Virus record (IMG/VR): IMGVR_UViG_3300000553_003130
Span: 1-35,805 of that record
Reading direction: 5' to 3' (one strand)
DNA: 35,805 bases
From: a virus
Part shown: positions 16,487-35,200 of the stretch, piece by piece
Layout of the letters: the number at the start of each line of letters is the position of its first letter
Position numbering within the stretch: the first letter of the stretch is position 1
Translations under genes and position numbers: made by a program
Notes under the pieces: generated by a model
What the model saw: the letters and a program-made list of their open reading frames with translations, nothing else
What the model was told of the DNA's origin: nothing
Database searches by the model: none

Positions 16487-16552
<66 letters not shown>

Positions 16553-16613: not shown

Positions 16614-16619
16614 TATAAT
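16614..16619 (+). promoter_or_regulatory. -10 element of a leaderless promoter
   Basis: TATAAT is followed by exactly 6 nt and the ATG at 16626, so transcription would be expected to start on the A of the start codon. The -35 position (16591-16596, GTGCAG) is a poor match. It drives the rightward operon, beginning with the triple-HTH protein. Confidence 0.6.
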
Positions 16620-16625
16620 CAATTT

Positions 16626-17126
16626 ATGGCAAAAAGAATCTCTCAAGATACCCGTAGTGATATCTGGCAGCTGGGAGAAGCAAAAGTTTCAGTTGCCGCA
16701 ATCGCTGAGCAGCTTGACGTCAGTATCCCATTTGTCTACAAGGTCCTGAGCGAAGGCGGACTACGGCCTGCAAAGCCCAATCCCCTTACTCCGGAGGCCC
16801 AAGTAGACGCATTCGAGATGTATCGTGCAGGAGTCCCATTAACCACGATATGCAAGAAACATGGTGTTAACCCGCAATACATATACCAAATGTTACGTGA
16901 GGCAAACGAGCCTCTTCAACGCGATGTCCAACGATTGACATTCGAACAGAACTTGGCCAAAGCGCTAACAATGTATCAGTCCCCTGAACAGCCGCCTATC
17001 TGGCAAATCTGCCGGGACTGTAACATTTCACAGCCTGCCCTCTACAAGGCGATCCACGATTACGAAATCGAAACTCGTAATGTTCCAAGGAGGATCAGTG
17101 TTCCACCTATTCAAGAAGCGTCGTGA
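16626..17126 (+). CDS. Triple helix-turn-helix DNA-binding regulator
   Basis: This 166-residue protein contains three tandem HTH units of about 45-50 residues: VAAIAEQLDVSIPFVYKVL, LTTICKKHGVNPQYIYQML and IWQICRDCNISQPALYKAI. The pattern resembles resolvase/transposase-type HTH domains without a catalytic domain. It is the first gene of the rightward operon and lies beside the palindrome and (AT)17 tract, so it is a good candidate regulator of the divergent promoters. The ATG at 16626 has no ribosome binding site; TATAAT lies 6 nt upstream, so translation would be leaderless. No ligand domain is visible. A role in origin recognition is the alternative. Confidence 0.75.
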   Translation: MAKRISQDTRSDIWQLGEAKVSVAAIAEQLDVSIPFVYKVLSEGGLRPAKPNPLTPEAQVDAFEMYRAGVPLTTICKKHGVNPQYIYQMLREANEPLQRDVQRLTFEQNLAKALTMYQSPEQPPIWQICRDCNISQPALYKAIHDYEIETRNVPRRISVPPIQEAS

Positions 17127-17358
17127 CCCCAACAAAGTCGGTCACTTCAACATCAACGGCAATAAGGTCGAAGTATTCAAGGACCCCGATGCTAAGCTCT
17201 TCCCCTACTACACCATTAGCGATACCGGCTTGGTGTCCACTAACGATGTCCAGACGATCCTTGATGTCAAACGGGCTGAACATGGTAAGCGCCCCCCTTT
17301 CTTCCGTGCCGGCGAATCTGCTCAACCCAAGCCCAAGCCCAAGCGAGGGAAAGCATGA
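17098..17358 (+). CDS. Small protein of unknown function
   Basis: This 86-residue protein is unrecognised. I placed the start at the GTG at 17098, where AAGGAGG lies 4 nt upstream. This overlaps the 3' end of the triple-HTH gene by 29 nt. The body looks like a small beta-rich domain (KVGHFNINGNKVEVFKDPDAKLFPYYTISDTG), and the C-terminus is a basic Pro/Lys tail (QPKPKPKRGKA). The next gene starts within its stop codon region, so the genes are co-translated. No enzyme motif is seen. Confidence 0.6.
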   Translation: MFHLFKKRRDPNKVGHFNINGNKVEVFKDPDAKLFPYYTISDTGLVSTNDVQTILDVKRAEHGKRPPFFRAGESAQPKPKPKRGKA

Positions 17359-17555
17359 CACTAGTAACTGAACCTGTTAACATTACGCCGGCAGTTCAAG
17401 ACAGCATTGAACACGGGTTGACCTTACTGGTTGACAAAGGAGGCATCGAAGGGTGGTACCGTACGAATACTGGGAATGGCTTGGTCTACCACATCCTACA
17501 GACCCCAACCCCCAAGGCTGGCGCCTCAGAACCCGAGTTGGCTGGCTCGAAGTAA
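17355..17555 (+). CDS. Small protein of unknown function
   Basis: This 66-residue protein is unrecognised. The ATG at 17355 overlaps the previous stop (ATGA). The sequence starts MTLVTEPVNITPAVQDSIEH, includes GWYRTNTGNGLVYHIL and ends in a low-complexity tail (PKAGASEPELAGSK). No membrane segment is present. A second frame with AAAGGAGG before a GTG at 17453 runs through its 3' half and continues into the next gene, so the boundary between these two genes is uncertain. Confidence 0.5.
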   Translation: MTLVTEPVNITPAVQDSIEHGLTLLVDKGGIEGWYRTNTGNGLVYHILQTPTPKAGASEPELAGSK

Positions 17556-17563
17556 GTACCCGC

Positions 17564-18079
17564 ATGACTGGAGATGTCTACCTGACCACAATCCAGTCGG
17601 TTCTTGGGGAAACCTTGGAACAAGTCATGCGCGACAACGATGCTCGTGCCATCCGGGTCCATCACATCTTGTGCAGACACGCCGCAAGGTTGCAAACTCT
17701 GGGCACTGACAACGTCATTCGCTGGGACAACAAGTATTCGGACTCGGCCTTAGACAAAGGAGCTGCGATCCCAATTGTCAAGCGCGCAGGTACGGCTGAC
17801 CAAGGCCTGGGGGGTGTGCTTCCTCCGGCCAAGGCGCCTGCTCAGGTCTTGGATAGTTTTGACTTCGCCGATGTCGTCGATCTTTCGGCAGGATCCAACG
17901 GTTTTGAAGTGGGAGCCATGATCGAAACTATTCGTGCCGATAAGAAAACCCCGAAAGGTCTGAAGGGCAGGCTCTTCTGGGTCGGCAACAACAAATATGG
18001 CCCCGGTTTACGCGGCGGCATTGAATCGGACGGCGTGACGTATTGGGTGTTGCAATCCAACTGTAAAGTGGGGGAGTGA
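17564..18079 (+). CDS. Hypothetical protein with GGVLPP segment
   Basis: This 171-residue protein is unrecognised. The N-terminal part is helical with a His/Cys cluster (VHHILCRHAARL near residues 33-44). A Pro/Ala-rich linker includes LGGVLPPAKAPAQ, encoded by the repeated 13-mer GGGGGTGTGCTTC (17810-17822). The C-terminal 80 residues (MIETIRADKKTPKGLKGRLFWVGNNKYGPGLRGG and what follows) form a basic beta-rich region that could bind nucleic acid. I prefer the ATG at 17564, which follows the previous stop; a GTG at 17453 with a strong ribosome binding site would give 208 residues. It ends 31 nt before the next gene. Confidence 0.5.
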   Translation: MTGDVYLTTIQSVLGETLEQVMRDNDARAIRVHHILCRHAARLQTLGTDNVIRWDNKYSDSALDKGAAIPIVKRAGTADQGLGGVLPPAKAPAQVLDSFDFADVVDLSAGSNGFEVGAMIETIRADKKTPKGLKGRLFWVGNNKYGPGLRGGIESDGVTYWVLQSNCKVGE

Positions 18080-18104
18080 CTTTTGCAGCGGAAGAGCGTA
18101 TAAT
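18076..18104 (+). promoter_or_regulatory. Leaderless promoter
   Basis: GTGACT (18076-18081), a 17-bp spacer and GCG-TATAAT (18099-18104), then CAAGCC and the ATG at 18111. The predicted transcription start is the A of the ATG. Confidence 0.65.
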
Positions 18105-18110
18105 CAAGCC

Positions 18111-18317
18111 ATGGTTAACATTCAATCAAAACTAGAACCGATCGAGCCGGCAAAGTCAAGCCGACTCGATGCCGATGAACTTAAGGAATTCTTGGCCTCT
18201 CTTGAAGAGGGGCCCAAGCCGCGCTACAAGTACGAGAAGCATCGATGGTGGCCCGGTAAGTTTGGAGATGATAATGAGACTAATACCGACGACCCGGACT
18301 CCGCGTCCCACGCTTAG
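18111..18317 (+). CDS. Small charged protein of unknown function
   Basis: This 68-residue protein is unrecognised. It starts immediately downstream of a TATAAT box (6 nt), without a ribosome binding site. The sequence is polar, with a short Leu/Glu helix (ADELKEFLASLEEG) followed by a basic aromatic patch (PRYKYEKHRWWPGKFG) and an acidic tail. The phrase EFLASLEEGPKPRY resembles EFLASLNIVPGPRY in the HTH protein two genes downstream (18453-18917), so the two may share a short interaction module. No catalytic motif is present. Confidence 0.6.
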   Translation: MVNIQSKLEPIEPAKSSRLDADELKEFLASLEEGPKPRYKYEKHRWWPGKFGDDNETNTDDPDSASHA

Positions 18318-18402
18318 ACATTGGGTCCTGGCCATTGTCCTGGCTGCACTGTTTGCACTTACAATGTGGCTATTGGCTGGTTGCCCTGCATTGACGGGGT
18401 GA
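18274..18402 (+). CDS. 42-residue membrane peptide with lipobox-like end
   Basis: The ATG at 18274 follows GGAGATGATA and overlaps the preceding gene by 44 nt in another frame. The 42-residue product has a basic N-terminus (MRLIPTTRTPRPTLRH), one transmembrane helix (WVLAIVLAALFALTMWLL) and the ending LLAGCPALTG. LAGC resembles a lipobox, which would leave only a six-residue lipidated tail, so it may instead be a plain tail-anchored peptide. Function is unknown. Confidence 0.45.
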   Translation: MRLIPTTRTPRPTLRHWVLAIVLAALFALTMWLLAGCPALTG

Positions 18403-18427
18403 TGACCACCTGAGTCACAAGTATAAT
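18399..18427 (+). promoter_or_regulatory. Promoter with short leader
   Basis: GTGATG (18399-18404), a 17-bp spacer and TATAAT (18422-18427). The next start codon is at 18453, so the leader is about 19 nt and contains AAGGAGA. It has the same core as the leaderless promoters but with a ribosome binding site. Confidence 0.5.
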
Positions 18428-18452
18428 TGACACAATTCAAGGAGACATTAAA

Positions 18453-18917
18453 ATGACCGAAACAGTTACCCAGCCCGTCGAGAAGATGGGCATTCGTCAA
18501 GCCGCAGTTTACGCCGACGTGTCCGAGCAGTACGTTCGCTCGTACCTGATTCGCAAAGGCAAAGTCGAATTCGTCAAGAACGACAAAGGCATCTGGGAGA
18601 CCACGAAAGACAAGGTCGACGCCTACCTAGCCACGGTAAAGGAGCGCCACGCCACCACACAGGCAAAAGGAGAGGCAAAAGCAAGTGTCATGCGGGCGGC
18701 TCCCGGCAAGACTGCTGTGATCCATTACGGATTCGAAGTCGCAACCCAAGTTGAGGAATTCCTGGCCAGCCTGAACATCGTCCCAGGGCCACGCTACAAT
18801 GCGGAAGCCATGAAAAAGTCACAAGAGAAGCAGAAGGCTAAGAAAGCCGCAGAACGTGCCGCAAAGCTCGCCGCTGCCGCTGCCGCGCCCGAACCGACTC
18901 CAGCCCCCGAAGGCTAA
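18453..18917 (+). CDS. Winged-HTH-like DNA-binding protein with Ala/Lys tail
   Basis: The protein has 154 residues. Residues 13-57 form a MerR/excisionase-like helix-turn-helix (IRQAAVYADVSEQYVRSYL, then a wing KNDKGIWETT). The same arrangement occurs in the protein at 34496-34849 (IRQAAIAMGTSEQYVRQLL, then KNEKGVWTV), so these are paralogs. A central segment (GFEVATQVEEFLASLNIVPGPRY) is followed by a Lys/Ala-rich helix and a Pro-rich end. AAGGAGA lies 10 nt before the ATG, and a strong terminator follows directly. It is probably an abundant regulator or nucleoid-type protein. Confidence 0.7.
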   Translation: MTETVTQPVEKMGIRQAAVYADVSEQYVRSYLIRKGKVEFVKNDKGIWETTKDKVDAYLATVKERHATTQAKGEAKASVMRAAPGKTAVIHYGFEVATQVEEFLASLNIVPGPRYNAEAMKKSQEKQKAKKAAERAAKLAAAAAAPEPTPAPEG

Positions 18918-18937
18918 TTCATTCCTGGACAAGTATA

Positions 18938-18964: not shown

Positions 18965-18971
18965 GATTTAC

Positions 18972-19385
18972 ATGATTGCAATTGATCCTGGCTTGACCAC
19001 TGGCATTGCTATAGGACATATCGATGCGTATAACCATTTCGTTTTGGAAACGTGTCATGTCGTTACTTGGGACCAACGTTTCGATCGGCTTTGGCGTCTC
19101 CTTGAGGCGCAAACGACGGTCATTATTGAAAGCTTTAACCTCTTCGAACACCACAAGAACGACCAGGTGGGGAGCTCGTTCCCGTCGTCGCAAGTGATCG
19201 GGATCGTTGAAGCGTTCTGTTGGCACCAAGGCATAACAGACGTTGTATTTCAAACACCCGCATCCCGTATCAAAGTAGCAATACTGCCCCAACATGAGTC
19301 CATAGTGGGCAAGGTAAGCCATTGTAAGGCGGCCTACCAACATCTCAGACTGTACGCAGTTACACATTGTCATGCTAAGTCCTAG
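18972..19385 (+). CDS. RuvC-like Holliday junction resolvase
   Basis: This 137-residue protein has the RNase H-fold pattern of RuvC-type nucleases: MIAIDPGLTTGIAIG with Asp5, VIIESF with Glu53, then SSFPSSQVIGIVEAF and a C-terminal helix HCKAAYQHLRLY where the usual Asp appears to be replaced by His (H117 or H124). It would cut four-way junctions during recombination or before packaging. The loss of a C-terminal acid could lower activity or change the metal site. The ATG at 18972 follows a terminator; a TTG at 18963 is possible but lies in the T-run. Its stop overlaps the helicase start by 14 nt. Confidence 0.7.
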   Translation: MIAIDPGLTTGIAIGHIDAYNHFVLETCHVVTWDQRFDRLWRLLEAQTTVIIESFNLFEHHKNDQVGSSFPSSQVIGIVEAFCWHQGITDVVFQTPASRIKVAILPQHESIVGKVSHCKAAYQHLRLYAVTHCHAKS

Positions 19386-20697
19386 ATCGTTTCAACTTGA
19401 AGCTATCGAATGCGCCGTTGCACGTAATGCCTATATAATGGACGGCTGTGGCACAGGCAAAACCTTAGTTGGTGTTGAAACTGGACTTAAGCTACGTCAA
19501 CGTCTACCCCGCCCCCTCCCCTTTTTAGTCGTTACCCCCAAAACTCCCCGTTGGCAATGGGAATCCACGATCTTAGAACAAGATCCTCAAGCCCAAGTGT
19601 TTGTCATCGACAGTAAGGCCCCCATATTTGACGAAGGGGCATCCTGGGCGGTGTGCCATCCCGATTTCCTGCGATCGTACGCCGACTTGTTGGTTGACAC
19701 CAGATGGGGCTTGGTTATTGTAGATGAGGCGCATTTGTTTCGTAATCGGAACACAGCTGTCTACAAAGCGCTTACGGATTTGCGTGTCTATAGGAAACTG
19801 GCCCTGTCGGCGACTCCAATGCACAAGGACCCGTCGGAGTTGTGGGCTATGCTTAGTTGGTTATACCCTCAAGACTTCCCGTCCTATTGGCATTTCCGTA
19901 ATCGATATGCGGATTATCAAGAGAACTATATGGGGTACAAGACGTTCATGGGCCCTAAGCACACTGACGAGCTTGCAATCAAACTAAAGGACTTTACCTT
20001 CCGTCGGACTCTCGCGGATGTCCCCGGTTTGCCTGCTCGACATATGACTGTGGTGAATGTCCCCGCCAATCCCCAACTACTCAAAGCCCATGAAGATGTT
20101 TTTAATGCCCCGGATATAGTAGTCGATGCCTTACCGAGTGAGCCAGTGATTATCAACACCCTGGCTGCCATCAACTACTTACGGCAACTGATATCCAATC
20201 CTCCCAGCAAAGGGTTTAACTTCGAAGGACCCAAGATTAAGTGGGCCTGCGACTACGTCAAAGAGAACCCAGAACAACGTATCGTAGTACTGTGCTATTA
20301 TATAGAGACGGCTAAGCGATTAGGTGAAGTCCTAAAGGTTCCCGGGTTGTATGGGGCGTCACCTATTAAGGATCAAGCGGTCGCTGATTTCCAACAAGGG
20401 AAGTCCACTCTATTAGTAGGTACGTTTGGGGCCTTGGGTACTGGTACCGATCTTCCTGGAGCTGATGTGGTTATCATTGTCGATCTGCTATACCAACGTA
20501 TTCAACTGGAACAAGCTATCGACCGTATCTACAGGATCAACATCACTACACCGAAGTTTATCAAACTGCTACGAGTACCCGACACAGTAGACGACTTACT
20601 GGTGAAAGCCATCGAAGAGAACTGGGGCTCAACGAAACTAGTGTTAGCATTCATTGCTAAAGCCAGGCGTGACAGTTTGACCACGTTTGGCGTATAA
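19372..20697 (+). CDS. SNF2-type superfamily 2 helicase/translocase
   Basis: This 441-residue protein has a Q-like motif (FQLEAIECA), Walker A GCGTGKT (25-31), motif II VDEAH (D118-H121), motif III LSATP (145-149), and C-terminal motifs including VGTFGALGTGTDLPGA and QLEQAIDRIYRI (motif VI). It is a compact SNF2-like ATPase of the kind phages carry in recombination blocks, moving along double-stranded DNA or remodelling forks. Length is normal for phage versions. It overlaps the RuvC-like gene upstream, and its last codons contain the promoter for the nuclease gene downstream, so the protein ends Phe-Gly-Val. Confidence 0.85.
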   Translation: MLSPRSFQLEAIECAVARNAYIMDGCGTGKTLVGVETGLKLRQRLPRPLPFLVVTPKTPRWQWESTILEQDPQAQVFVIDSKAPIFDEGASWAVCHPDFLRSYADLLVDTRWGLVIVDEAHLFRNRNTAVYKALTDLRVYRKLALSATPMHKDPSELWAMLSWLYPQDFPSYWHFRNRYADYQENYMGYKTFMGPKHTDELAIKLKDFTFRRTLADVPGLPARHMTVVNVPANPQLLKAHEDVFNAPDIVVDALPSEPVIINTLAAINYLRQLISNPPSKGFNFEGPKIKWACDYVKENPEQRIVVLCYYIETAKRLGEVLKVPGLYGASPIKDQAVADFQQGKSTLLVGTFGALGTGTDLPGADVVIIVDLLYQRIQLEQAIDRIYRINITTPKFIKLLRVPDTVDDLLVKAIEENWGSTKLVLAFIAKARRDSLTTFGV

Positions 20698-20698
20698 T
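20669..20698 (+). promoter_or_regulatory. Leaderless promoter overlapping a stop codon
   Basis: GTGACA (20669-20674), an 18-bp spacer and GGCG-TATAAT (20693-20698). The helicase stop TAA lies inside the TATAAT. The next ATG (20705) is exactly 6 nt after the hexamer, so the transcript would be leaderless. Confidence 0.7.
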
Positions 20699-20704
20699 TA
20701 CACC

Positions 20705-21760
20705 ATGAAGACATCAATACACGTTTCCGATGTTCGGACGTTTTGGAAATGTAAGATGCAGTGGGGCTTTACATCGCCGTTACGCCGTAACTTGGAACCT
20801 GATCGAATTTACGCCCCCTTTCTAACTGGCCGAGCCGTCCACTTTGGGCTCGAACAGTATTACAAAGGTGTTGATGTGACCAAAGCCCTGGATGCATTCT
20901 TTGCGGCCGAGAAGGCTAAACTGGAAGCTTCCGGGGGCATGGACGACTTGGTCTTTGGCGAACAGGTTGACTTGACAACTGGTTTGATTCAGCACTATTT
21001 ACAGTGGGTTAAGAACCAACATACCATGTGGTCCGACGACCAGTTCGACTTTCTAAAGTGGGAACATGAATGGCATCTTCCGTTGCTTACCCCAGCTGGG
21101 CGAATCAGTCCACGAATTGTACTTGGCGGTCGATTCGATGGCCTGATTCGCCGCAAGGATGACAAATCGTTGTGGCTATGGGAAACCAAAACCGCGCGGT
21201 CCATCGACGAATTGGGCTCTACTCTTTGGAATGATTTGCAAGCAACGGTTTACTGTGACGCAGCCCGCCGACTTTATAACGAGCCTATAGCGGGGGTGCT
21301 CTACAACGTAATGCGCAAGAAACTGCCGACCGAACCAGAGGTGTTGAAGTCTGGTTACTTGACAATGCGGGCTAACATCGATACTACGCCTGAGGCCTAC
21401 GCAGCCGCAGTCAAGGCACACCATAAAGAGGTCACCCTTGAGATTCGTGCCCATTACGAAGAATTCCTGTATAATTTATCACGTACCCAAACTCCATTCT
21501 TTGCGCGGATACCTATACGACGTACCAAAGAACAATTAGACCGAGCCATGACAAACATGTATTACGTTTGCCTGGAGATGGCACACCCACAAACGGCGGT
21601 GTTTCCAATGCCGGCTTGGTCAAGTTGTCGCTTCTGTATGTTCCAGGACCCTTGTAAGGCATGGAGTGAAAATCGTCTTGACATGATGGAACGCATCCTG
21701 ACAGACGAGTATCGGGTTAAGCAACCATATTCCGACTTGGAGGTAGAGATAGAATCATGA
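20705..21760 (+). CDS. PD-(D/E)XK nuclease, Cas4/RecB-like with Fe-S cysteines
   Basis: This 351-residue protein belongs to the PD-(D/E)XK exonucleases. GGRFDGLIR carries Asp145, WLWETKTA carries Glu160 and Lys162, and a QATVYCDAARRL helix follows, as in RecB/Cas4 proteins. Cys16 together with Cys308-x2-Cys311-x5-Cys317 gives the four-Cys arrangement that holds an iron-sulfur cluster in AddB and Cas4. It probably resects DNA ends for the annealing protein encoded next. The ATG at 20705 is leaderless. The stop overlaps the start of the acidic peptide (ATGA). Confidence 0.85.
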   Translation: MKTSIHVSDVRTFWKCKMQWGFTSPLRRNLEPDRIYAPFLTGRAVHFGLEQYYKGVDVTKALDAFFAAEKAKLEASGGMDDLVFGEQVDLTTGLIQHYLQWVKNQHTMWSDDQFDFLKWEHEWHLPLLTPAGRISPRIVLGGRFDGLIRRKDDKSLWLWETKTARSIDELGSTLWNDLQATVYCDAARRLYNEPIAGVLYNVMRKKLPTEPEVLKSGYLTMRANIDTTPEAYAAAVKAHHKEVTLEIRAHYEEFLYNLSRTQTPFFARIPIRRTKEQLDRAMTNMYYVCLEMAHPQTAVFPMPAWSSCRFCMFQDPCKAWSENRLDMMERILTDEYRVKQPYSDLEVEIES

Positions 21761-21900
21761 ACGGTCCTTTCTTTCGATTACTAGAAGATCCACCAGACGA
21801 CGTTGTCGATGACGACGCAGAATTCGAAGACGATTTCGAGGAAGAGGACGAGGACGACGACGATGAGAGCGACGAACCCGAATCAGATATCGACGCTTAA
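21757..21900 (+). CDS. Very acidic 47-residue protein
   Basis: The ATG overlaps the nuclease stop (ATGA) and the frame ends at TAA 21898-21900. Of 47 residues, 26 are Asp or Glu and only one is basic (Arg7). The acidic run covers residues 10-46. After a short hydrophobic start (MNGPFFRLLEDPP) the chain is probably disordered. Such composition is seen in DNA-mimic inhibitors of nucleases or restriction enzymes, and the neighbours are a nuclease and an annealing-type ATPase. The last 35 nt overlap the next gene. A role as translational coupler alone is the alternative. Confidence 0.6.
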   Translation: MNGPFFRLLEDPPDDVVDDDAEFEDDFEEEDEDDDDESDEPESDIDA

Positions 21901-22663
21901 GATCCTGTTGTACGGCGATCCTGGGTCAACTAAGACTCGGACAGCCGCCACAGCCGCAATGGATCCCCGAACAGCCCCGGCATTGATGATCGACATCGGC
22001 GGCAATCCTATTAGCATTCGTGACTACAAGGAACGCCCCGACGTCATTAGCATTGACGCATTGACCGACTTGAACCTGATTTATGCATGGATCAAAGGCG
22101 GTCAAAGTGTCGAAGCTATGTTTACTCAGGCCGGCAAGCCAACGAACTTTGTTGAGGCCATGCAGTTGCATCCTCCATACAAGACGTTGATAATCGATGG
22201 TGTAACCGATCTGCAGCGCTTTTCATTTGGTCAAGTTACTGGCAATGATGCTACAGGGCCCGGCGATCTCCCAAACGAGACTAAGCGGCCACACTTCAAT
22301 GCTGTGCTAGGTCAGATGGTGAAAATCGCACGATTGTTTTACGACCTGCCGATGCATGTTATTATGACGGCATTGGAGCACAGCGACAAAGACGCGACGA
22401 CTGAATTGATAACCTATCGTCCCTTACTACTGGGCCAGTCAGCTTCCGAAGTTGCTGGGTATGCGTATGTAGTGGGGCGAATGGTCCATCGTACAAAAGT
22501 AGCGGACAAGATTGGCATCTCTGAAGACTCGATCGGCAAGACCGCTACAAGCATCGCGCTTTTCAAACCGTCCGGCAAATACGTGGCTAAAGACCAAACC
22601 GGGCGGCTCGGGGCCTACATGATCGACCCCACAATGACAAAGATCATGGATCTAGCTTATTAA
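21866..22663 (+). CDS. Sak4-like RecA-fold ATPase (AAA_24)
   Basis: This 265-residue protein has Walker A GDPGSTKT (18-25), a central TLIIDGVTDLQRF (Walker B) and VIMTALEHSD later, as in the AAA_24/Sak4 group of phage recombinases related to the RecA core. These proteins assist single-strand annealing with a phage ssDNA-binding protein, which matches the next gene. I chose the ATG at 21866 because it follows a purine-rich stretch and begins just before the first strand; a longer frame from 21803 would add a low-complexity Thr/Arg stretch. It overlaps the acidic peptide by 35 nt. Confidence 0.8.
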   Translation, partial: RATNPNQISTLKILLYGDPGSTKTRTAATAAMDPRTAPALMIDIGGNPISIRDYKERPDVISIDALTDLNLIYAWIKGGQSVEAMFTQAGKPTNFVEAMQLHPPYKTLIIDGVTDLQRFSFGQVTGNDATGPGDLPNETKRPHFNAVLGQMVKIARLFYDLPMHVIMTALEHSDKDATTELITYRPLLLGQSASEVAGYAYVVGRMVHRTKVADKIGISEDSIGKTATSIALFKPSGKYVAKDQTGRLGAYMIDPTMTKIMDLAY

Positions 22664-22700
22664 GTGGTGGTAGCCACTAACTAAAGGAAACCTAAAAACC

Positions 22701-23192: not shown

Positions 23193-23224
23193 AGCAGGCA
23201 TGCTACCACTGCTTAGTTTCAATG

Positions 23225-23251
23225 GAGGCCTACTAATCCTGGGCCTCTTTT
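23225..23251 (+). terminator. Rho-independent terminator
   Basis: GAGGCC and GGCCTC pair around an 11-nt loop and are followed by TTTT then GCGTTT. It sits between the ssDNA-binding gene and the primase-helicase start (23265). No TATAAT-type promoter is visible in the 14 nt after it, so it is likely partial. Confidence 0.7.
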
Positions 23252-23264
23252 GCGTTTCGATACC

Positions 23265-25646: not shown

Positions 25647-26344
25647 ACAGTACAGCAATTATATCAGTTAGTGGCGGACTTGATTCGACCACTTTACTTC
25701 ATTACATTGTCGGGCAGGGAGAAAAGCCCATTGCCGTCATGTTCGATTACGGCCAACGGCATGATAAAGAATGCGGTTGTGCTGTTGAACAATGCAGCAA
25801 GTTAGAAGTCCCATGGATGTTTATTCAGCTTGACGAATACCAAGACATTGCTTCGCGAATGTCGGCGCTTGTGAACCCCTTGATCGCCGTGCCGACTGTC
25901 CAAGAGGCTATGGGCGATCCTCAGCCGGTCAGCTATGTCCCAAACCGTAACATGTTGTTTTTGAGCTACGCTGTCGCCATGGCTGAATCATTGGGCATCA
26001 GGAACGTCTACTACGGCGCGCAAAAGCATGACACTTACGGTTATTGGGACACCACACCAGAATTCGTTGCCGCCTTGAACGGTGTTTACCGGTTAAACCG
26101 TAAGAACCCGATTCAGATCTTAGCCCCCTTTGTCAATAAGTCGAAGGCGGATGAGATCCTACTTGGAATCGAGTTGGGCATCGATTACGCCAATACGTGG
26201 TCATGCTATCAAGGGGGCGATAAGGCATGTGGCGTGTGTGCTACTTGCGCTGAACGCCTTAAGGGCTTCATGGACGCTGGCATCCCCGATCCGCTTGAAT
26301 ATGCCTTCTTACCGTCGGGCTATAAGCAGCGGTTTGGTGTATAA
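25643..26344 (+). CDS. queC: 7-cyano-7-deazaguanine synthase (QueC)
   Basis: This 233-residue protein converts 7-carboxy-7-deazaguanine to preQ0 using ATP and ammonia. It has the PP-loop SGGLDST (10-16), FDYGQRH (35-40), the conserved PVSYVPNRNMLFLS (95-108) and four zinc Cys at C188, C196, C199 and C202. Length is normal. Its ATG overlaps the primase-helicase stop, so it starts the modification operon. The 3' end carries a promoter, so the protein ends Phe-Gly-Val before a TAA that is part of TATAAT. In phage 9g QueC is fused to Gat; here Gat is a separate downstream gene. Confidence 0.95.
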   Translation: MNSTAIISVSGGLDSTTLLHYIVGQGEKPIAVMFDYGQRHDKECGCAVEQCSKLEVPWMFIQLDEYQDIASRMSALVNPLIAVPTVQEAMGDPQPVSYVPNRNMLFLSYAVAMAESLGIRNVYYGAQKHDTYGYWDTTPEFVAALNGVYRLNRKNPIQILAPFVNKSKADEILLGIELGIDYANTWSCYQGGDKACGVCATCAERLKGFMDAGIPDPLEYAFLPSGYKQRFGV

Positions 26345-26345
26345 T
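26340..26345 (+). promoter_or_regulatory. -10 element of a leaderless promoter overlapping a stop codon
   Basis: GGTG-TATAAT contains the queC stop codon, and the ATG at 26352 follows exactly 6 nt later. The -35 position has no good match. This would give the middle of the modification operon a second, leaderless transcript. Confidence 0.55.
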
Positions 26346-26351
26346 TGTCTT

Positions 26352-28819: not shown

Positions 28820-29376
28820 TGCCCACGCCAACTCAAATCAAGGAATTGTCAAACGTACTGAACAGCGTCTTCCGCGCCGAATCATGGGATGATGGCGTGG
28901 AAGAGACTGCCCGACGTGTATTGTCGTACTGGGAATCAATGGTTGAGCCCGTCAAGATGCCGTTTACGTTTACGACATTTCCAGCGGTCGCCAACCAAAT
29001 GATAATTGTCAAGGACGTTGAGTACACCAGTATGTGCGCACACCACCTTCTGCCCTTCTACGGGGTCGCTCACGTGGCCTACATTCCGAACCGCAGAATG
29101 GTGGGGCTGTCTAAGATACCCCGAGTTATTGACTGGTTTGCACACCAGCCTCAGACCCAAGAAAAGCTGACGACCCAGATCGCTAAGTTTCTCAAGGACG
29201 CATTGGAAGCCCATGGCGTATCAGTAGTCATGGAAGCTCGGCACACCTGCATGAGTTGCCGCGGGGTCATGAAGTATGAAGCGTCGATGATTACTTCGGA
29301 ACAGCGTGGCGTTTTCCTGACCTCAGGTGAAGCCCGTGCCGAGTTCATGGCGTTGATAAATCGATCGCGTATGTAA
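28819..29376 (+). CDS. folE: GTP cyclohydrolase I (FolE)
   Basis: This 185-residue protein performs the first step of the pathway, turning GTP into dihydroneopterin triphosphate. Zinc ligands Cys73 and His76 are in MCAHHLLPFYG, and Cys144 is in ARHTCMSCRGV. YIPNRRMVGLSKIPR is the conserved substrate and oligomer region. Length is normal. The TAATG overlap with queE indicates translational coupling. A phage-borne FolE raises precursor supply beyond host levels. Confidence 0.95.
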   Translation: MPTPTQIKELSNVLNSVFRAESWDDGVEETARRVLSYWESMVEPVKMPFTFTTFPAVANQMIIVKDVEYTSMCAHHLLPFYGVAHVAYIPNRRMVGLSKIPRVIDWFAHQPQTQEKLTTQIAKFLKDALEAHGVSVVMEARHTCMSCRGVMKYEASMITSEQRGVFLTSGEARAEFMALINRSRM

Positions 29377-29391
29377 TTCGTGGGATTAAAC

Positions 29392-30105
29392 ATGGGAATT
29401 AAACTTGCACACATTGTTCCGCCATCATTTGGAGACCTGTATCGGACAGGCTACTATTTGGCTTTAGGCCAGAAGTTGTTGTCTGATCGTGGTTACCGCG
29501 AACAGACCCTCCGCCTATCAAAGGCAGGGGGTTTTGTTATTGTTGACAATGGGGCCGCTGAATTCGATCAGCCCCCATTTGCCGACGTCGCTCAGGTGGC
29601 TGCTTATGTACGGGCTGCAGAAGTGGTCATGCCTGACGTATTGTTCGACAAAGAAGCCACCATCGCGAATGTTACTGCCCTAAAGAATCGTAACTTGGTT
29701 CCGCCTGAACAACGATTGATAATCCCCCAAGGCAATACAATCGCCGAATGGTTCGAATGCCTGGCATTCCTGAAAGAAGCCGTAGCATTTGGAACTCTTG
29801 GGATCCCAAAGCATCTAGAGAAGCATGAGGGGGGACGTGCCAAAGTCATGAACGAGCTGCCGGCCACAGCCCAGCGTATTCACTTCTTTGGGGTCTATCA
29901 GGATCCCAAGACTGAAATCGCAACTGCTGTAGCAGCTAAGGTTCGCGGACTTGATAGTGGCGCAGCAGTGGCTTATGCTCAAGCAAACATGCGGCTTGAC
30001 AGCGGCATTCATGTCTCACTTAATTGGGACGCTCGTCCCGGTCCACAAGAACGAACCGAAGCGTTCAAAAACATCATGCAAATGGAGGACTGGGCCAATG
30101 GCTGA
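29392..30105 (+). CDS. dpdA: Phage DpdA-like DNA 7-deazaguanine transglycosylase
   Basis: This 237-residue protein resembles short phage DpdA proteins, distant relatives of tRNA-guanine transglycosylase, which replace guanine in DNA by a 7-deazaguanine base. Visible features are GGFVIVDNGAAEFD with a likely active-site Asp52, VVMPDVLFDKEATI, the barrel strand LGIPKHLEKHEGG and IHFFGVYQD. It lacks the zinc domain of tRNA-type enzymes. It follows folE by 15 nt in the preQ0 operon, and its stop overlaps the next gene by 8 nt. Identity rests on motif pattern plus operon context. Confidence 0.8.
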   Translation: MGIKLAHIVPPSFGDLYRTGYYLALGQKLLSDRGYREQTLRLSKAGGFVIVDNGAAEFDQPPFADVAQVAAYVRAAEVVMPDVLFDKEATIANVTALKNRNLVPPEQRLIIPQGNTIAEWFECLAFLKEAVAFGTLGIPKHLEKHEGGRAKVMNELPATAQRIHFFGVYQDPKTEIATAVAAKVRGLDSGAAVAYAQANMRLDSGIHVSLNWDARPGPQERTEAFKNIMQMEDWANG

Positions 30106-30325
30106 GTACTACGAACGTTACTTCGGCAACAAACAAGATCCAACACGCGCAACAGTAGTAGACGGGATTGTGGTGTCAATTTATTTGCCCCGCAATGCCA
30201 GCCTGCTGCAGCGCCTAGTCGAGCCATCATATATTGGTAAGACCGCCGCCGAACTGGAGGCTTTAGGATTTTACAATGAACGACAAACTACCGAAAGCTC
30301 ACTGTCAAAACTGCACGCTTCGTAA
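30098..30325 (+). CDS. Small protein between dpdA and the polymerase
   Basis: This 75-residue protein is unrecognised. GGAGGAC precedes the ATG at 30098, and the frame overlaps dpdA by 8 nt and the polymerase by 50 nt. The sequence MAEYYERYFGNKQDPTRATV continues with IYLPRNASLLQRLVEPSYIG, suggesting a small mixed fold. No Cys or metal motif is visible. It may be an accessory factor of either neighbour. Confidence 0.55.
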   Translation: MAEYYERYFGNKQDPTRATVVDGIVVSIYLPRNASLLQRLVEPSYIGKTAAELEALGFYNERQTTESSLSKLHAS

Positions 30326-32615
30326 CGAGTCACTGGTACCGCCCTGTGGTCCTGATGACGCCAAGATTATTGTCATTGGCGAAGGGCCTGGGGCTACCGA
30401 AGTCGATAAGGGGCAGCCGTTTGCAGGCCCTGCCGGCAAAGTACTTGACTACACACTCAGGCACGCCAATGTTGAACCCGCGTTCGTCTGGAAAACGAAT
30501 GTGGTGATGTGTCGACCGCCTGCCAATCGAGACCCCAGTCCCAACGAAATCTTGTGCTGTCGTGATCGCTTAGCCGCTGAACTGGAAGCACACCCCCGAG
30601 CCATAGTTCTGCCGCTTGGGAAAATGGCGACCTCCACGCTTGGCCTGGATTTCAAGAACCGCGGGCTTTGGCAAAAGTATCAGGGGCATGATCTCATTAC
30701 GTCATGGCATCCCGCCTACATATTGCGCCAGCCTGACGAGCTTAATGTTCTCATAAACGACATCCGTAAAGTAGCTCGGGGGCCCGAAGCAGCGATTAAA
30801 GCTCCCAAGATTATCATGCCGCGCAGTCTTGAGGAATTACAGGCTGCGCTCGTACGATTGGAAGCCGACAGTACCAACAACTGGGTCGCGTTTGATCTAG
30901 AGACAGACCAACTACGATGGTACGATACCAAGTCGGAACCCAAAGATTCCATACTGTGCTTGGCCTTGTGTTCACGGACTGACTACGCCGTGATTGTCAA
31001 CGACGAAATGCTGTATGACACCGCCGGAGTTCAAAACGAACTCCAAACGTTCTTCAATGCCATGAAAGCCATTGGGCACAATGCTAAGTTCGATGTTCTG
31101 CATCTCCGCAACATTGGCATTGAGGTCGCGCCTGCGTTTGACACAATGTTGGCCCACTACGTACTGGATGAAAATAGTAAACATGGGCTAAAAGAATTGG
31201 CGGCTAATTGGCTTGGGGTACCTGACTATGAAGAAGAGTTGGTCCAGAAGTACTTGAAGTCACGCAACGACCGCTACAGCAAAGTACCTCCAAACGAGCT
31301 GGCCCAATACGCCGGCTGGGACGTAGCAATAACACTGTCTCTTAAGGTTATTTTCACCGATCTGTTACTGCGCAACAAGCAGTACAACATGCCGTTCTAC
31401 GGCGTGCTTATGCCTGTGAGTCTAATGGCCACTGAGATGGAACGCGTCGGCATTATGGTCGATACCGAATACCTGGTTCGGGTGAGATCGGCCCTTAGCG
31501 GCATCAGCGAAGCAGCTGTCGACGAAATGAAAACGATTTCGGGAGAGCCCGACCTAAACATCGGTTACCCTGCCGCGCTAAGCAAAGTGATGTACGGCAA
31601 ACTGGGGTTCAAGAAGCCTGTAGGTAAAGGGATCTCGTCTGCGGCCACAAGCAAAGCAGCGTTGGTTGAATTGCCAGATGTACCGTTCACACGGGCCCTA
31701 CGTCGCTATCGGGCCGCCAATAAGATGCGATCGGCATACGTTGAAAATCTGTTGGAGAACCAGGACGAAAACGACAGGGTCCATTGTACAGTTTTGGTTC
31801 ATGGGACTGAGATCGGGCGAATCTCAATGCGCAATCCGGCACTGATGACGATCCCACGGGAAAAGGGCAATCCATACGGGGCCATGATTCGTGGGGCTTT
31901 CATCGCCAAGCCAGGGCATAAGCTGATTATCATTGACTACAGTCAAGCTGAACTGCGTGCAATGGCCGCTCTAAGCATGGAGCCGTTTCTAATCGATGTA
32001 TACGCGCATGATAGGGATTTGCATACAGAAGTAGCTAAAGCCATGTTTGGCGCTAATTACACTAAGGAACAGCGCGTACAATGCAAGATGTTTAACTTCG
32101 CTTACGCTTACGGCGGAACTGAATACAGCTTTGCAAGAGACGCGGGATTACCACTGAACGTGGCCCAAAAGTTTGTTGCCGACTACGACAAGAACATGCC
32201 GGTGTTGAAGGCCTGGAAACGGGCTCAAATGGAACAGTTGCGGGCTAAGGGCTACGTTCAAACTCCGTTCGGTCGGCGACGTCGCTTTCCGATTATCACT
32301 CAGGAGAATGAGGACGATGCACGTAAGGCATGCGTGCATATGCCTGTGGCTAGCACAGCTGCAGATCTAACATTATTGAGTTGCGTAGAGCTTAGCCAAG
32401 GGGGGTTTGAGGTTGTTCTTACTGTACACGACAGTATTATCATTGAGGCCCCCGATCATATGGCTAATGAAGTCGGAGAGATAGCGTTAGCAGTGATGGT
32501 AGGTATGGGGGAGAAGTACTTGCCGCAGGTAAAGTGGAAAGCGGACGTGGATATCGTTGATAGATGGGCCGAAGCGCCGGAGATCAAGTTCGATGAATCC
32601 GCACCGGAGCTCTGA
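30276..32615 (+). CDS. Family-4 uracil-DNA glycosylase domain fused to DNA polymerase I (family A)
   Basis: The protein has 779 residues. Residues 1-175 match family 4 UDG: Cys10-x2-Cys13 with Cys79 and Cys94/95 for an Fe-S cluster, GEGPGATEVDKGQPFAGPAG (35-54), and SWHPAYILR (143-151). Residues about 200-360 are a proofreading exonuclease (D207 and E209 in AFDLETD, D273 in AKFD, D349 in YAGWDVA). The polymerase has motif A IDYSQAELR (D554), motif B R600-x3-K604 to Y612-G613 and motif C TVHDS (D719). All catalytic acids look intact. Fusing uracil removal to synthesis may exclude uracil or sense a modified base. Confidence 0.9.
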   Translation: MNDKLPKAHCQNCTLRNESLVPPCGPDDAKIIVIGEGPGATEVDKGQPFAGPAGKVLDYTLRHANVEPAFVWKTNVVMCRPPANRDPSPNEILCCRDRLAAELEAHPRAIVLPLGKMATSTLGLDFKNRGLWQKYQGHDLITSWHPAYILRQPDELNVLINDIRKVARGPEAAIKAPKIIMPRSLEELQAALVRLEADSTNNWVAFDLETDQLRWYDTKSEPKDSILCLALCSRTDYAVIVNDEMLYDTAGVQNELQTFFNAMKAIGHNAKFDVLHLRNIGIEVAPAFDTMLAHYVLDENSKHGLKELAANWLGVPDYEEELVQKYLKSRNDRYSKVPPNELAQYAGWDVAITLSLKVIFTDLLLRNKQYNMPFYGVLMPVSLMATEMERVGIMVDTEYLVRVRSALSGISEAAVDEMKTISGEPDLNIGYPAALSKVMYGKLGFKKPVGKGISSAATSKAALVELPDVPFTRALRRYRAANKMRSAYVENLLENQDENDRVHCTVLVHGTEIGRISMRNPALMTIPREKGNPYGAMIRGAFIAKPGHKLIIIDYSQAELRAMAALSMEPFLIDVYAHDRDLHTEVAKAMFGANYTKEQRVQCKMFNFAYAYGGTEYSFARDAGLPLNVAQKFVADYDKNMPVLKAWKRAQMEQLRAKGYVQTPFGRRRRFPIITQENEDDARKACVHMPVASTAADLTLLSCVELSQGGFEVVLTVHDSIIIEAPDHMANEVGEIALAVMVGMGEKYLPQVKWKADVDIVDRWAEAPEIKFDESAPEL

Positions 32616-32868: not shown

Positions 32869-32884
32869 TCGGGGTTTTCTTTTT
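32853..32884. terminator. Bidirectional rho-independent terminator
   Basis: AAAACCCC pairs with GGGGTTTT (10 bp with the inner GA/TC), loop GTGA, with A-run and T-run on the two sides. It lies between convergent genes ending at 32868 (+) and 32887 (-) and can stop transcription in both directions. Confidence 0.9.
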
Positions 32885-32886
32885 GC

Positions 32887-33093
32887 CTACGCTTTGTCTT
32901 CGATACCCACAATCGCATCGTTGCTAAGTGGGAGCCGGCTGAAGTTGTCTTCGACGGCTACAAGTCGTGTAAACTCGAGTGAACCATGGCGTGCTGGAGG
33001 GTAGATCGTCTTGATCAGTGCGCCACAATAGTACATGTTGACGGGCTTAACGTTGTTCAATTCGATCGCTTCTTTTAGTGTTACGTATTTCAT
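32887..33093 (-). CDS. Small protein with leaderless start
   Basis: This 68-residue protein is unrecognised: MKYVTLKEAIELNNVKPVNM, then YCGALIKTIYPPARHGSLEF and an acidic tail. I chose the ATG at 33093 because TATAAT ends exactly 6 nt upstream. A longer frame to 33213 would include the promoter and part of the upstream terminator. It is a stand-alone unit bounded by a terminator-promoter element and the bidirectional terminator. Function is unknown; the sequence looks like a compact alpha/beta domain. Confidence 0.6.
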   Translation of the reverse strand: MKYVTLKEAIELNNVKPVNMYYCGALIKTIYPPARHGSLEFTRLVAVEDNFSRLPLSNDAIVGIEDKA

Positions 33094-33099
33094 GGCTTG

Positions 33100-33128
33100 A
33101 TTATACGCCGCCGCCGCGCAAAAAGCAA
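33100..33128 (-). promoter_or_regulatory. Leaderless promoter with consensus-like -35
   Basis: On the minus strand TTGCTT (33128-33123), a 17-bp spacer and GGCG-TATAAT (33105-33100), followed by CAAGCC and the ATG at 33093. The -35 lies in the T-run of the upstream terminator. Confidence 0.75.
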
Positions 33129-33155
33129 GCCCCCAATCTTTCCCAGACTGGGGGC
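33117..33155 (-). terminator. Terminator overlapping the next promoter
   Basis: On the minus strand GCCCCCAGTCT pairs with AGATTGGGGGC (one mismatch) around GGGAA, followed by TTGCTTTTT. It ends the 33168-33431 gene, and its tail forms the -35 of the next promoter. Confidence 0.75.
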
Positions 33156-33167
33156 CTGTTAATGTGA

Positions 33168-33431: not shown

Positions 33432-33437
33432 GTGTTT

Positions 33438-33551
33438 TTACCTCTCACTGATAACCATAAGAAAGATCAGGGTCATGATAATGCGCCGATAAGTCTTCGG
33501 CATCGTTGCCATGTACCGACGGATTGCTACGGCTTCTGCTGGTGTAAACAT
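33438..33551 (-). CDS. 37-residue leaderless peptide gene
   Basis: The ATG at 33551 follows 6 nt after TAAAAT, a variant of the promoter family. The peptide starts MFTPAEAVAIRRYMATMPKT and ends with a hydrophobic helix (RRIIMTLIFLMVISER) before TAA. The stop overlaps the ribosome binding site of the 87-residue protein. It may be a small membrane peptide or a leader that couples translation to the next gene. Confidence 0.5.
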   Translation of the reverse strand: MFTPAEAVAIRRYMATMPKTYRRIIMTLIFLMVISER

Positions 33552-33557
33552 GGTTTG

Positions 33558-33586
33558 ATTTTACGCCGGCTTGTCTTGATTGGCAA
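33558..33586 (-). promoter_or_regulatory. Leaderless promoter variant
   Basis: TTGCCA (33586-33581), a 17-bp spacer and GGCG-TAAAAT (33563-33558), then CAAACC and the ATG at 33551. It matches the family at all positions except TAAAAT in place of TATAAT. Confidence 0.6.
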
Positions 33587-33592
33587 GCCGGC
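33565..33592 (-). other. 9-bp hairpin embedded in a promoter
   Basis: GCCGGCTTG pairs with CAAGCCGGC around a 10-nt loop. It ends at the GGCG that begins the promoter of the 37-residue gene and overlaps its -35. No T-run follows, so termination of the upstream gene would be weak; a protein-binding or cruciform role is possible. Confidence 0.5.
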
Positions 33593-33602
33593 AATTTCGT
33601 TC

Positions 33603-34316
33603 CTAGTTCAGCGCCTTGTTGGCGGTCAACGATGCGCCGAATTGCACACCGGTGCTGAACGCGGTGGCTTCGGTCTTCAGATGACGTAGCTTAGAAGCGT
33701 GCAGGCCAACACTCTGCTTGACCCACAGTTCGGCTTCCTTCCGGGCATTGCCTACTACGACCAGGGCCATGCTGTTGGCTGTCTGTTCCTGCTGCTGTGC
33801 CTTGGCCACGATTGCGGCGTATCCCTTAGGGGCTCCGATCTTGAACGACTTGATCCAGGTCGCGCGAATGGCTTGAACCCCAGACTGCCGATAGAACGAC
33901 ACACCTGTGCGCGCCTTTTCGCTGGCGGCGTGCTGTTTGAAGCTTTCGACGGCCTGTAGCTGAATGGCGCGCTCGAACACCGTGAACAAGTGCACTGCCA
34001 CCGCTACATTGCTGGGCCGACCACTGAATAGGAACGAATCGTTTCCGGTGTGACGATACACATAGGTTCCGGTGGCGACAGACACTGCCATGGCCAACTC
34101 GCCCATCCACTGTTCCAGCGTACCCGGTTTGGCTTCGGCCGATTCGAGCGTTGCCTTTTCTCCGACGGGGCGGCATTCCTCTTCGGAGACCATGTACTTT
34201 GTCATTAGCGACGTTGCCTTGGCCATTGCGACTTCGGCTTCGCTAGTTGTAGCCCCTTCGTTAAAGGCTAGGGCTAGTAGTTTGGCGATCAATTCACGAG
34301 CTTCTTTTTTTTCCAT
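33603..34316 (-). CDS. DUF2786-domain protein
   Basis: The protein has 237 residues. The N-terminal 40 residues (ELIAKLLALAFNEGATTSEAEVAMAKATSLM) match DUF2786, and the rest (ELAMAVSVATGTYVYRHTGNDSFLFSGR to the C-terminus) resembles its usual partner domain. Function of the family is unknown, though phages carry it often. I chose the ATG at 34316: GAGGTAAGTGAA precedes it and TATAAT lies 18 nt upstream. The frame open to 34349 would include the promoter. No catalytic motif was found. Confidence 0.75.
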   Translation of the reverse strand: MEKKEARELIAKLLALAFNEGATTSEAEVAMAKATSLMTKYMVSEEECRPVGEKATLESAEAKPGTLEQWMGELAMAVSVATGTYVYRHTGNDSFLFSGRPSNVAVAVHLFTVFERAIQLQAVESFKQHAASEKARTGVSFYRQSGVQAIRATWIKSFKIGAPKGYAAIVAKAQQQEQTANSMALVVVGNARKEAELWVKQSVGLHASKLRHLKTEATAFSTGVQFGASLTANKALN

Positions 34317-34334
34317 TTCACTTACCTCGGTTTG

Positions 34335-34363
34335 ATTATACGCCCCCATAGGCTAGAAAGCAA
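34335..34363 (-). promoter_or_regulatory. Promoter with short leader
   Basis: On the minus strand TTGCTT (34363-34358), a 17-bp spacer and GGCG-TATAAT (34340-34335). The leader before the ATG at 34316 is about 12 nt and holds GAGGTAAG. AAATTGGGGGA precedes the -35. Confidence 0.75.
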
Positions 34364-34431
34364 TCCCCCAATTTCGCGCCTTCCCCTGAGCCTGATTGTC
34401 ATTCCCATGAACTTAGATTGGGGGGGTGCTT
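34362..34431. repeat. Inverted repeat between divergent promoters
   Basis: AATCCCCCAAT (from 34362) and ATTGGGGGGG (ending at 34426) are inverted copies flanking about 40 nt, and the outer flanks GAAAGC and GCTTTC also match. Each arm sits at the -35 of one of two divergent promoters. It may act as a shared regulatory site. Confidence 0.5.
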
Positions 34432-34453
34432 TCCAACAGATCTGGCGTATAAT
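34426..34453 (+). promoter_or_regulatory. Promoter with leader
   Basis: GTGCTT (34426-34431), a 16-bp spacer and GGCG-TATAAT (34448-34453). The leader before the ATG at 34496 is about 37 nt and holds GTGAGGTAA as ribosome binding site. AGATTGGGGGG precedes the -35. Confidence 0.7.
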
Positions 34454-34495
34454 CAAGCTGTAGGTAAGCAAGTCCAAGTTAGTGAGGTAAACCAA

Positions 34496-34849
34496 ATGTC
34501 AGATCAGAACGAAACAACCGCCAACAGCACGCTCAACATTCGCCAGGCCGCCATTGCCATGGGCACCAGCGAACAGTACGTCCGCCAGCTCCTCATCACG
34601 GGGAAGGTTCCCGGCGAAAAGAATGAGAAGGGTGTGTGGACCGTCAACGCTGAAGACGCCGCACAGCACAGCGTCGCTTCCAAGTCCAACGCCGCAGTCG
34701 CGTACATCGTGTACTTGACCCCCGAAGAGGTCACCCGTGTGCAGGCCGCATTGCCGATGGTTCGTCTGGAGAAGCGGTTCGACAGCACGAAAGCCAAGGC
34801 ATATCGGGCCCGCAAGAGCCAGAACGAAGAAGCCGCCGCCAGTGAGTAG
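34496..34849 (+). CDS. Winged-HTH-like DNA-binding protein, paralog of 18453-18917
   Basis: The protein has 117 residues. The HTH region (IRQAAIAMGTSEQYVRQLL followed by KNEKGVWTV) matches the protein at 18453-18917 across the whole recognition unit, including the identical SEQYVR. The middle (YIVYLTPEEVTRVQAALPMV) and basic tail (RFDSTKAKAYRARKSQ) correspond loosely to the other protein. It is a stand-alone unit with its own promoter and a strong terminator immediately downstream. It probably regulates the promoter family or competes with its paralog for sites, which is inference. Confidence 0.7.
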   Translation: MSDQNETTANSTLNIRQAAIAMGTSEQYVRQLLITGKVPGEKNEKGVWTVNAEDAAQHSVASKSNAAVAYIVYLTPEEVTRVQAALPMVRLEKRFDSTKAKAYRARKSQNEEAAASE

Positions 34850-34858
34850 GTAACAAAA

Positions 34859-34888
34859 GACCCCCGCTAATCACGGGGGTCTTTTTTT
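34859..34888 (+). terminator. Rho-independent terminator
   Basis: GACCCCCG pairs with CGGGGGTC around CTAATCA, followed by seven T. It closes the HTH gene. A promoter for the next gene begins 14 nt later. Confidence 0.9.
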
Positions 34889-34901
34889 GCATATTGCCGG
34901 C

Positions 34902-34930
34902 GTGCCATTGTGGCAGATCCGGCGTATAAT
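34902..34930 (+). promoter_or_regulatory. Leaderless promoter
   Basis: GTGCCA (34902-34907), a 17-bp spacer and GGCG-TATAAT (34925-34930), then CAAGCC and the ATG at 34937. The sequence from GGCG to the ATG is identical to that at 33093. Confidence 0.75.
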
Positions 34931-34936
34931 CAAGCC

Positions 34937-35131
34937 ATGGAATACATCATTGTTCGTATCAGCAAGTCGATCAAGTCGGCAACCGAGTTTTATTGCGGCG
35001 GTTTCGGATGGGATCCCAATAAGGCCTACGCCGTTCGCTTTGCGACCAAGAAACTGGCCGAGCAGCGTATTATTGACCGCGGCTTCAACGGCGGCAAGCA
35101 CGTCGAATACAAGGTACGCGGAGTTAAGTAA
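34937..35131 (+). CDS. Small protein with leaderless start
   Basis: This 64-residue basic protein is unrecognised. MEYIIVRISKSIKSATEFYC is followed by GGFGWDPNKAYAVRFATKKL and a helix-turn toward KHVEYKVRGVK. The compact alternation of strands and helices resembles a small ferredoxin-like or dsRNA-binding-type fold, but no family could be assigned. TATAAT lies 6 nt before the ATG, and a terminator follows directly, so it is an independent unit. Confidence 0.6.
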   Translation: MEYIIVRISKSIKSATEFYCGGFGWDPNKAYAVRFATKKLAEQRIIDRGFNGGKHVEYKVRGVK

Positions 35132-35139
35132 TAAGTAAG

Positions 35140-35174
35140 CCCCCTCCAATCGCCGGATTGGGGGGGTGTTTTTT
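35140..35174 (+). terminator. Rho-independent terminator fused to the next promoter
   Basis: CCCCCTCCAATC pairs with GATTGGGGGGG around GCCG, followed by TGTTTTTT. The GTGTTT formed by the stem end and T-run is the -35 of the promoter at 35166-35194. Confidence 0.85.
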
Positions 35175-35194
35175 GTTTTGAAGTAGCGTATAAT
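35166..35194 (+). promoter_or_regulatory. Leaderless promoter
   Basis: GTGTTT (35166-35171), a 17-bp spacer and AGCG-TATAAT (35189-35194), then CAAGCC and the ATG at 35201. It overlaps the terminator of the previous gene. Confidence 0.7.
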
Positions 35195-35200
35195 CAAGCC

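What the first reader, a model, noticed from the sequence alone, without database searches (positions are those of the whole stretch)
16614..35200. Family of leaderless promoters with fixed geometry
Seven sites place TATAAT or TAAAAT exactly 6 nt before an ATG (16626, 18111, 20705, 26352, 33093 on minus, 34937, 35201), and an eighth does so for the 37-residue peptide (33551 on minus). The core is GGCGTATAATCAAGCCATG. With normal sigma70 geometry, transcription starts on the A of the ATG. Related copies upstream of 18453, 34316 and 34496 have added leaders with ribosome binding sites.
Basis: partly seen in the sequence, partly recalled or inferred. Interest (0 to 1): 0.78.

Follow-up and report, generated by a model that had tools for sequence, protein, structure and literature searches.

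The report
Phage promoters fused to start codons
[quoted passage not shown] it is a clear new example of a known but uncommon way for phages to start genes.

Summary
The window, an uncultivated tailed-phage contig, has TAWAAT-N6-ATG at exactly the eight places named, against 0.49 expected. No other spacing from 0 to 15 exceeds two. All eight ATGs open ORFs with the genome's codon usage.

The sites look like real promoters. [GT]TG lies 17 bp upstream at 8 of 11 family sites versus 1 of 11 other TATAATs, and a pyrimidine precedes +1 at 11 of 11 versus 3 of 11. Standard geometry puts +1 on the A of ATG. Terminators abut three of the promoters.

The best new evidence is the exonuclease gene (20705). 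In 6 of 7 homologous loci the TATAAT lies 22-43 nt before the ATG, with a Shine-Dalgarno leader; here it lies 6 nt before, with none. The leader was apparently lost.

Corrections: the exact core occurs twice; there are two subclasses; the 18453 copy shares little beyond GTATAAT. No transcription start was measured and the host is unknown.

Leaderless -10-adjacent promoters are established in Deinococcus and leaderless messages in phage phiYS40: a new member of a known kind.

The parts
16591..16625 (+). Leaderless promoter (subclass B) of the HTH gene 16626-17126
   Evidence: TATAAT 16614, N6, ATG; GTG at spacer 17
18076..18110 (+). Leaderless promoter (subclass A) of ORF 18111-18317 (68 aa)
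   Evidence: GTGACT at spacer 17
20669..20704 (+). Leaderless promoter (subclass B) of the exonuclease 20705-21760; relatives have the same promoter with an SD leader
   Evidence: GTGACA at spacer 18; orthologues
26340..26351 (+). Leaderless -10 (subclass B) of ORF 26352-26621 (89 aa); no clear -35; holds the stop codon of queC
33094..33128 (-). Leaderless promoter (subclass A) of ORF 32887-33093 (68 aa); overlaps the end of a terminator
   Evidence: TTGCTT at spacer 17
33552..33586 (-). Leaderless promoter (subclass A, TAAAAT) of ORF 33438-33551 (37 aa); spacer region is an inverted repeat
   Evidence: TTGCCA at spacer 17; fold
34902..34936 (+). Leaderless promoter (subclass A) of ORF 34937-35131 (64 aa)
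   Evidence: GTGCCA at spacer 17
35166..35200 (+). Leaderless promoter (subclass A) of ORF 35201-35611 (136 aa); -35 overlaps a terminator's T run
   Evidence: GTGTTT at spacer 17
34329..34363 (-). Leadered relative (subclass A), predicted 12-nt leader with GAGG, gene 33603-34316 (DUF7168/DUF2786)
34426..34459 (+). Leadered relative (subclass A), predicted 36-nt leader with GAGG, gene 34496-34849
18399..18433 (+). Leadered, only distantly similar promoter, predicted 19-nt leader with AAGGAG, gene 18453-18917
33126..33158 (-). Intrinsic terminator fused to the promoter of 33093
   Evidence: 14-pair stem; fold z -3.64
34855..34885 (+). Intrinsic terminator upstream of the promoter of 34937
   Evidence: 12-pair stem then T run; fold z -4.62
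35141..35166 (+). Intrinsic terminator fused to the promoter of 35201
   Evidence: 11-pair stem; fold z -4.07

Best explanation
Eight genes in the rightward (replication) and right-end part of this phage genome are transcribed, most likely by the host's housekeeping RNA polymerase, from sigma70-type promoters placed so that +1 is the A of the ATG. Their mRNAs are leaderless and are translated by recognition of the 5'-terminal AUG, without a Shine-Dalgarno. Shown here: the geometry, its non-random spacing, the other promoter features, the missing SD, and the leadered state of the same exonuclease promoter in related phages. Inferred: use by host sigma70, start on the A, leaderless translation, and loss of the leader in this lineage. 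Subclass A promoters share sequence from about -45 to -1 and probably arose by duplication of one block.
For: 8 sites versus 0.49 expected; peak at one spacing only; all 8 at ORF starts with positive coding score; [GT]TG at spacer 17 in 8 of 11 family sites versus 1 of 11 other TATAATs, G before the -10 in 11 of 11 versus 2 of 11, pyrimidine at -1 in 11 of 11 versus 3 of 11; no SD match at the 8 starts; terminators abut three of the promoters; in 6 of 7 distinct exonuclease homologues TATAAT lies 22-43 nt before the ATG with an SD, in the window 6 nt with none, in the same gene order; the same layout was tested in Deinococcus (PMC12340547, passages).
Against: No RNA data; host unknown. 26340 has no clear -35. 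At 20705 and 26352 the upstream stop codon lies in the -10, so coupling is possible. The exact block was found in no other virus, so conservation of the spacing in close kin is untested. One exonuclease homologue (L054) has no TATAAT. Many other genes of the window also lack an SD match, so its absence alone proves little; the paired SD comparison is not significant (p 0.17).
Confidence: 0.82

Rival explanations
1. The genes are mainly translated from longer read-through transcripts by SD-independent initiation or by coupling to the upstream gene; the N6 promoter is secondary.
For: Many window genes lack an SD match; at 20705 and 26352 the upstream stop codon lies 7-8 nt before the ATG.
Against: Three sites follow terminators, 16626 follows a divergent, gene-free region, and 33093/33551 are opposite in direction to their right-end neighbours. 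It does not explain the fixed spacing.
Confidence: 0.1
2. The block is a start-associated or operator sequence: a site for a phage DNA- or RNA-binding protein placed next to start codons, as proposed for the start-associated sequences of cluster K mycobacteriophages. It need not exclude the promoter reading.
For: Conservation of the discriminator CAAGCC beyond what a promoter needs; the phage encodes HTH proteins; GGC...GCC ends of the core.
Against: Subclass B lacks the CAAGCC discriminator but keeps -10 and N6; two copies of the block occur before leaders instead of start codons.
Confidence: 0.06
3. Chance or base composition.
For: AT-rich phiYS40 has 6 N6 sites in 50 kb without a sharp peak.
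Against: 0 of 100 shuffles reach 8; single-spacing peak; all 8 at gene starts.
Confidence: 0.01

Closest known systems
-10 motif adjacent to ORFs in Deinococcus-Thermus (PMC12340547, passages) and TA-led leaderless genes (Zheng 2011, PMC3160421, passages)
   Same: A -10 about 6-7 bp before the ORF that drives leaderless mRNA; a -35 at 17 bp strengthens it.
   Different: Those motifs are degenerate TANNNT in cellular genomes; here TATAAT is nearly invariant, the spacing is exactly 6 and the flanks are repeated.
Thermus phage phiYS40 leaderless middle/late transcripts (review PMC3594737, passages; primary paper Sevostyanova 2007 not read)
   Same: A phage with a set of leaderless messages.
   Different: There the class is middle/late; in the 50 kb I scanned there is no sharp N6 peak. 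No homology was tested.
Predicted leaderless promoters of cluster O mycobacteriophages such as Corndog (PMC4351075, passages) and P90 of Adephagia (PMC11373665, passages)
   Same: SigA-like promoters with +1 on the first base of the start codon.
   Different: Three or one per genome; here eight with a shared sequence.
Start-associated sequences (SAS/ESAS) of cluster K mycobacteriophages (PMC11373665, passages)
   Same: A short repeat next to many start codons, some with an upstream promoter.
   Different: The SAS is thought to act in translation and extends a ribosome-binding site; here the repeat is a -10 and no SD is present.
Promoter-plus-stem-loop mobile regulatory cassettes of T4-type phages (recalled; the search listings gave no paper that I read on it)
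   Same: Repeated intergenic units that join a terminator to a promoter.
   Different: Only three copies here have a clear terminator, and the start codon directly follows the promoter.

Membership tests
Leaderless -10-adjacent (TA-led) genes | -10-like hexamer about 6-7 bp before the start codon | tested here: met
   8 sites, all N6
Leaderless -10-adjacent (TA-led) genes | No Shine-Dalgarno before the start codon | tested here: met
   No match at the 8 starts
Leaderless -10-adjacent (TA-led) genes | Mapped 5' end on the first base of the start codon | not testable with these tools
   No RNA data held
Sigma70-type promoters | -35 at 16-18 bp from the -10 | tested here: met
   [GT]TG at 16-18 in 10 of 11 sites, weak match to TTGACA; none at 26340
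phiYS40-type leaderless phage gene set | Change of host initiation factors (IF2 up, IF3 down) during infection | not testable with these tools
   Reported for phiYS40; needs infection data
Cluster K start-associated sequence | Repeat next to start codons that includes a ribosome-binding site | tested here: not met
   No SD in the block; the repeat is a -10

The most novel reading that the evidence does not exclude
This phage lineage has rewired several replication and right-end genes from leadered, SD-driven starts to leaderless ones, by bringing the promoter up to the ATG and by spreading a promoter block that in places also overlaps the upstream terminator, so that about 60 bp end one gene and start both transcription and translation of the next at the same base. 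This would mark adaptation to a host that translates leaderless messages well.
Probability: 0.35. Interest if true: 0.6.

Novelty: new member of a known kind. Interest (0 to 1): 0.45.

Why it matters
The same gene, the exonuclease, is leadered in relatives and apparently leaderless here, which makes a natural experiment on how leaders are lost. A sharp -10-N6-ATG peak is also a simple sign for finding leaderless gene sets in uncultivated viruses, and may hint at which hosts they infect.

Tried and rejected
Other genomes with the block: an exact 18-mer and a version with one free position found one viral contig, L034, where the hit lies inside a 222-codon ORF on the other strand. The 19-mer in GTDB contigs gave 3 hits. 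Both are about what chance would give by my own estimate from pattern length and collection size, not a tool result. Relatives by the right-end gene 33603-34316 and by the helicase gave none.

Looser TANNNT-N6-[AG]TG looked enriched (40, versus 17-29 at the other spacings from 3 to 10), but listing those that open at least 30 codons or start a listed gene adds no convincing new leaderless gene.

Host: DNA polymerase, TerL, a protein shared with L013/L014, a right-end protein and the primase against phage records gave only distant hits or none; no tRNA; integrases but no telling host gene among 8 proteins of two structural relatives. Host left open.

SD poverty as a genome-wide trait: suggestive (4 of 40 versus 54 of 114 genes with a six-base SD) but not supported by the paired test on 11 shared genes (p 0.17). 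In one search genes were picked mechanically and starts chosen in favour of SDs. In one search two genes with doubtful starts (g17564, g18981) were left out of the comparison set of 37. 5'-end features of the eight ORFs differ from other genes only in G content (p 0.02 of five tests, not corrected).

Control phages were eight stretches of my own choosing (TM4, lambda, BFK20, phiYS40, P23-45, a Manatee Spring phage, StAshley, Cozz), not a random sample.

Full report
What was checked. The count is 8 at a spacing of six and at most 2 at any other spacing from 0 to 15. The window is a virus record without end repeats, a tailed phage with terminase genes, a DNA polymerase, and QueC/D/E and GTP cyclohydrolase genes. 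It has no near DNA match among 50,697 phage records (only the right-hand 19.8 kb was given).

Are the ATGs gene starts? Each of the eight opens an ORF of 37 to 351 codons. On a codon-usage score trained on 18 long genes of the window, each exceeds at least 96% of 302 wrong-frame open runs. The exonuclease start (20705) is confirmed by the N-termini of two homologues. The product at 16626 carries a helix-turn-helix. The products at 18111, 26352, 33093, 34937 and 35201 have no Pfam match; the 37-residue product was not scanned.

Are the TATAATs promoters? Aligned on the -10, the 11 sites (eight plus three leadered) have [GT]TG at a spacer of exactly 17 in 8 of 11 and at 16-18 in 10 of 11. The 11 other TATAATs of the window have it at 17 in 1 of 11. 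G precedes the -10 in 11 of 11 against 2 of 11, and a pyrimidine lies at -1 in 11 of 11 against 3 of 11. A purine lies at +1 in all 11, including the leadered sites, where it is not part of an ATG. With usual sigma70 geometry (established knowledge, recalled) the first well-placed purine is the A of the ATG. The family is not uniform: five of the eight, with the two leadered sites before 34316 and 34496, form subclass A; 16614, 20693 and 26340 share GTTTG before the -10 instead (subclass B). The sites are therefore not eight independent events; subclass A probably spread by duplication (inference).

Context. Intrinsic terminators abut the promoters of 33093, 34937 and 35201. In the first and last the terminator's end overlaps the -35 region. 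At 20705 and 26352 the upstream gene's stop codon TAA lies inside the TATAAT, so coupling is an alternative there.

Relatives. The exonuclease alignment found 13 loci, of which 8 are good homologues; two of these (L047, L048) have the same upstream sequence, leaving 7. In 6 of the 7 a TATAAT lies 22, 29, 30, 41, 42 or 43 nt before the ATG, with an SD of GGAGG, AAGGAG or GAGGAG type; the seventh, L054, has none. The same six have the helicase upstream and share the order helicase, exonuclease, annealase, SSB, primase with the window. The window thus keeps the promoter at the same place, but against the ATG and without an SD. Loss of the leader in this lineage is the simplest reading. Across 18 records (17 found by homology, and L034), 6 have one or two TAWAAT-N6-ATG sites and none has a set like this. 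Among eight control phage stretches the N6 count is 0 or 1, except AT-rich phiYS40 with 6 and no sharp peak.

SD use. By a mechanical gene pick, 4 of 40 window genes but 54 of 114 genes of polymerase relatives have a six-base SD (Fisher p 2e-5). Relatives by structural genes are about as SD-poor as the window (none of 19, and 9% of 33). A paired comparison over 11 shared genes is not significant (p 0.17). I do not rest the case on this.

Literature. In Deinococcus radiodurans a -10 motif about 6-7 bp before ORFs was tested by experiment and drives leaderless genes; a -35 at 17 bp strengthens it (PMC12340547, passages). Zheng 2011 reads such signals as leaderless genes across bacteria (PMC3160421, passages). 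phiYS40 makes most of its middle and late messages without leaders (review PMC3594737, passages). Corndog-group phages have three promoters predicted leaderless (PMC4351075, passages). Other searches were seen as listings only. The present case is a new member of a known kind, with unusually tight geometry and an informative contrast with its relatives.

Verdict. Observation confirmed; leaderless reading supported at about 0.82, pending 5'-end mapping.

Noticed in passing
20687-20707 and 26334-26354: The helicase and queC both end FGV-stop with the TAA stop codon inside the TATAAT of the next gene's promoter.
   Followed up: partly
25643-29376: Cluster of queC, queD, queE and GTP cyclohydrolase genes with a glutamine-amidotransferase-like ORF, which suggests a 7-deazaguanine DNA modification (function inferred).
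   Followed up: no
18453-18917 and 34496-34849: Two paralogous small genes (57% identity over 37 residues), both with leadered promoters.
   Followed up: partly
16484-16541: A long AT dinucleotide repeat in the divergent region between the leftward and rightward gene blocks; possible origin or control region.
   Followed up: no
35301-35368: A 33-bp in-frame tandem repeat (2.1 copies) inside the ORF 35201-35611.
   Followed up: no
33552-33602 and 34891-34936: Inverted repeats between the -35 and -10 of two promoters (GCCGGCTTG/CAAGCCGGC at the first, fold z -4.64; GCCGG/CCGGC and TGCCA/TGGCA at the second), possible operators.
   Followed up: no
1761-16376 versus 19372-32615: Mosaic ancestry: structural genes are nearest to contigs L013/L014, replication genes to L009-L012, which differ in GC and SD use.
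   Followed up: partly
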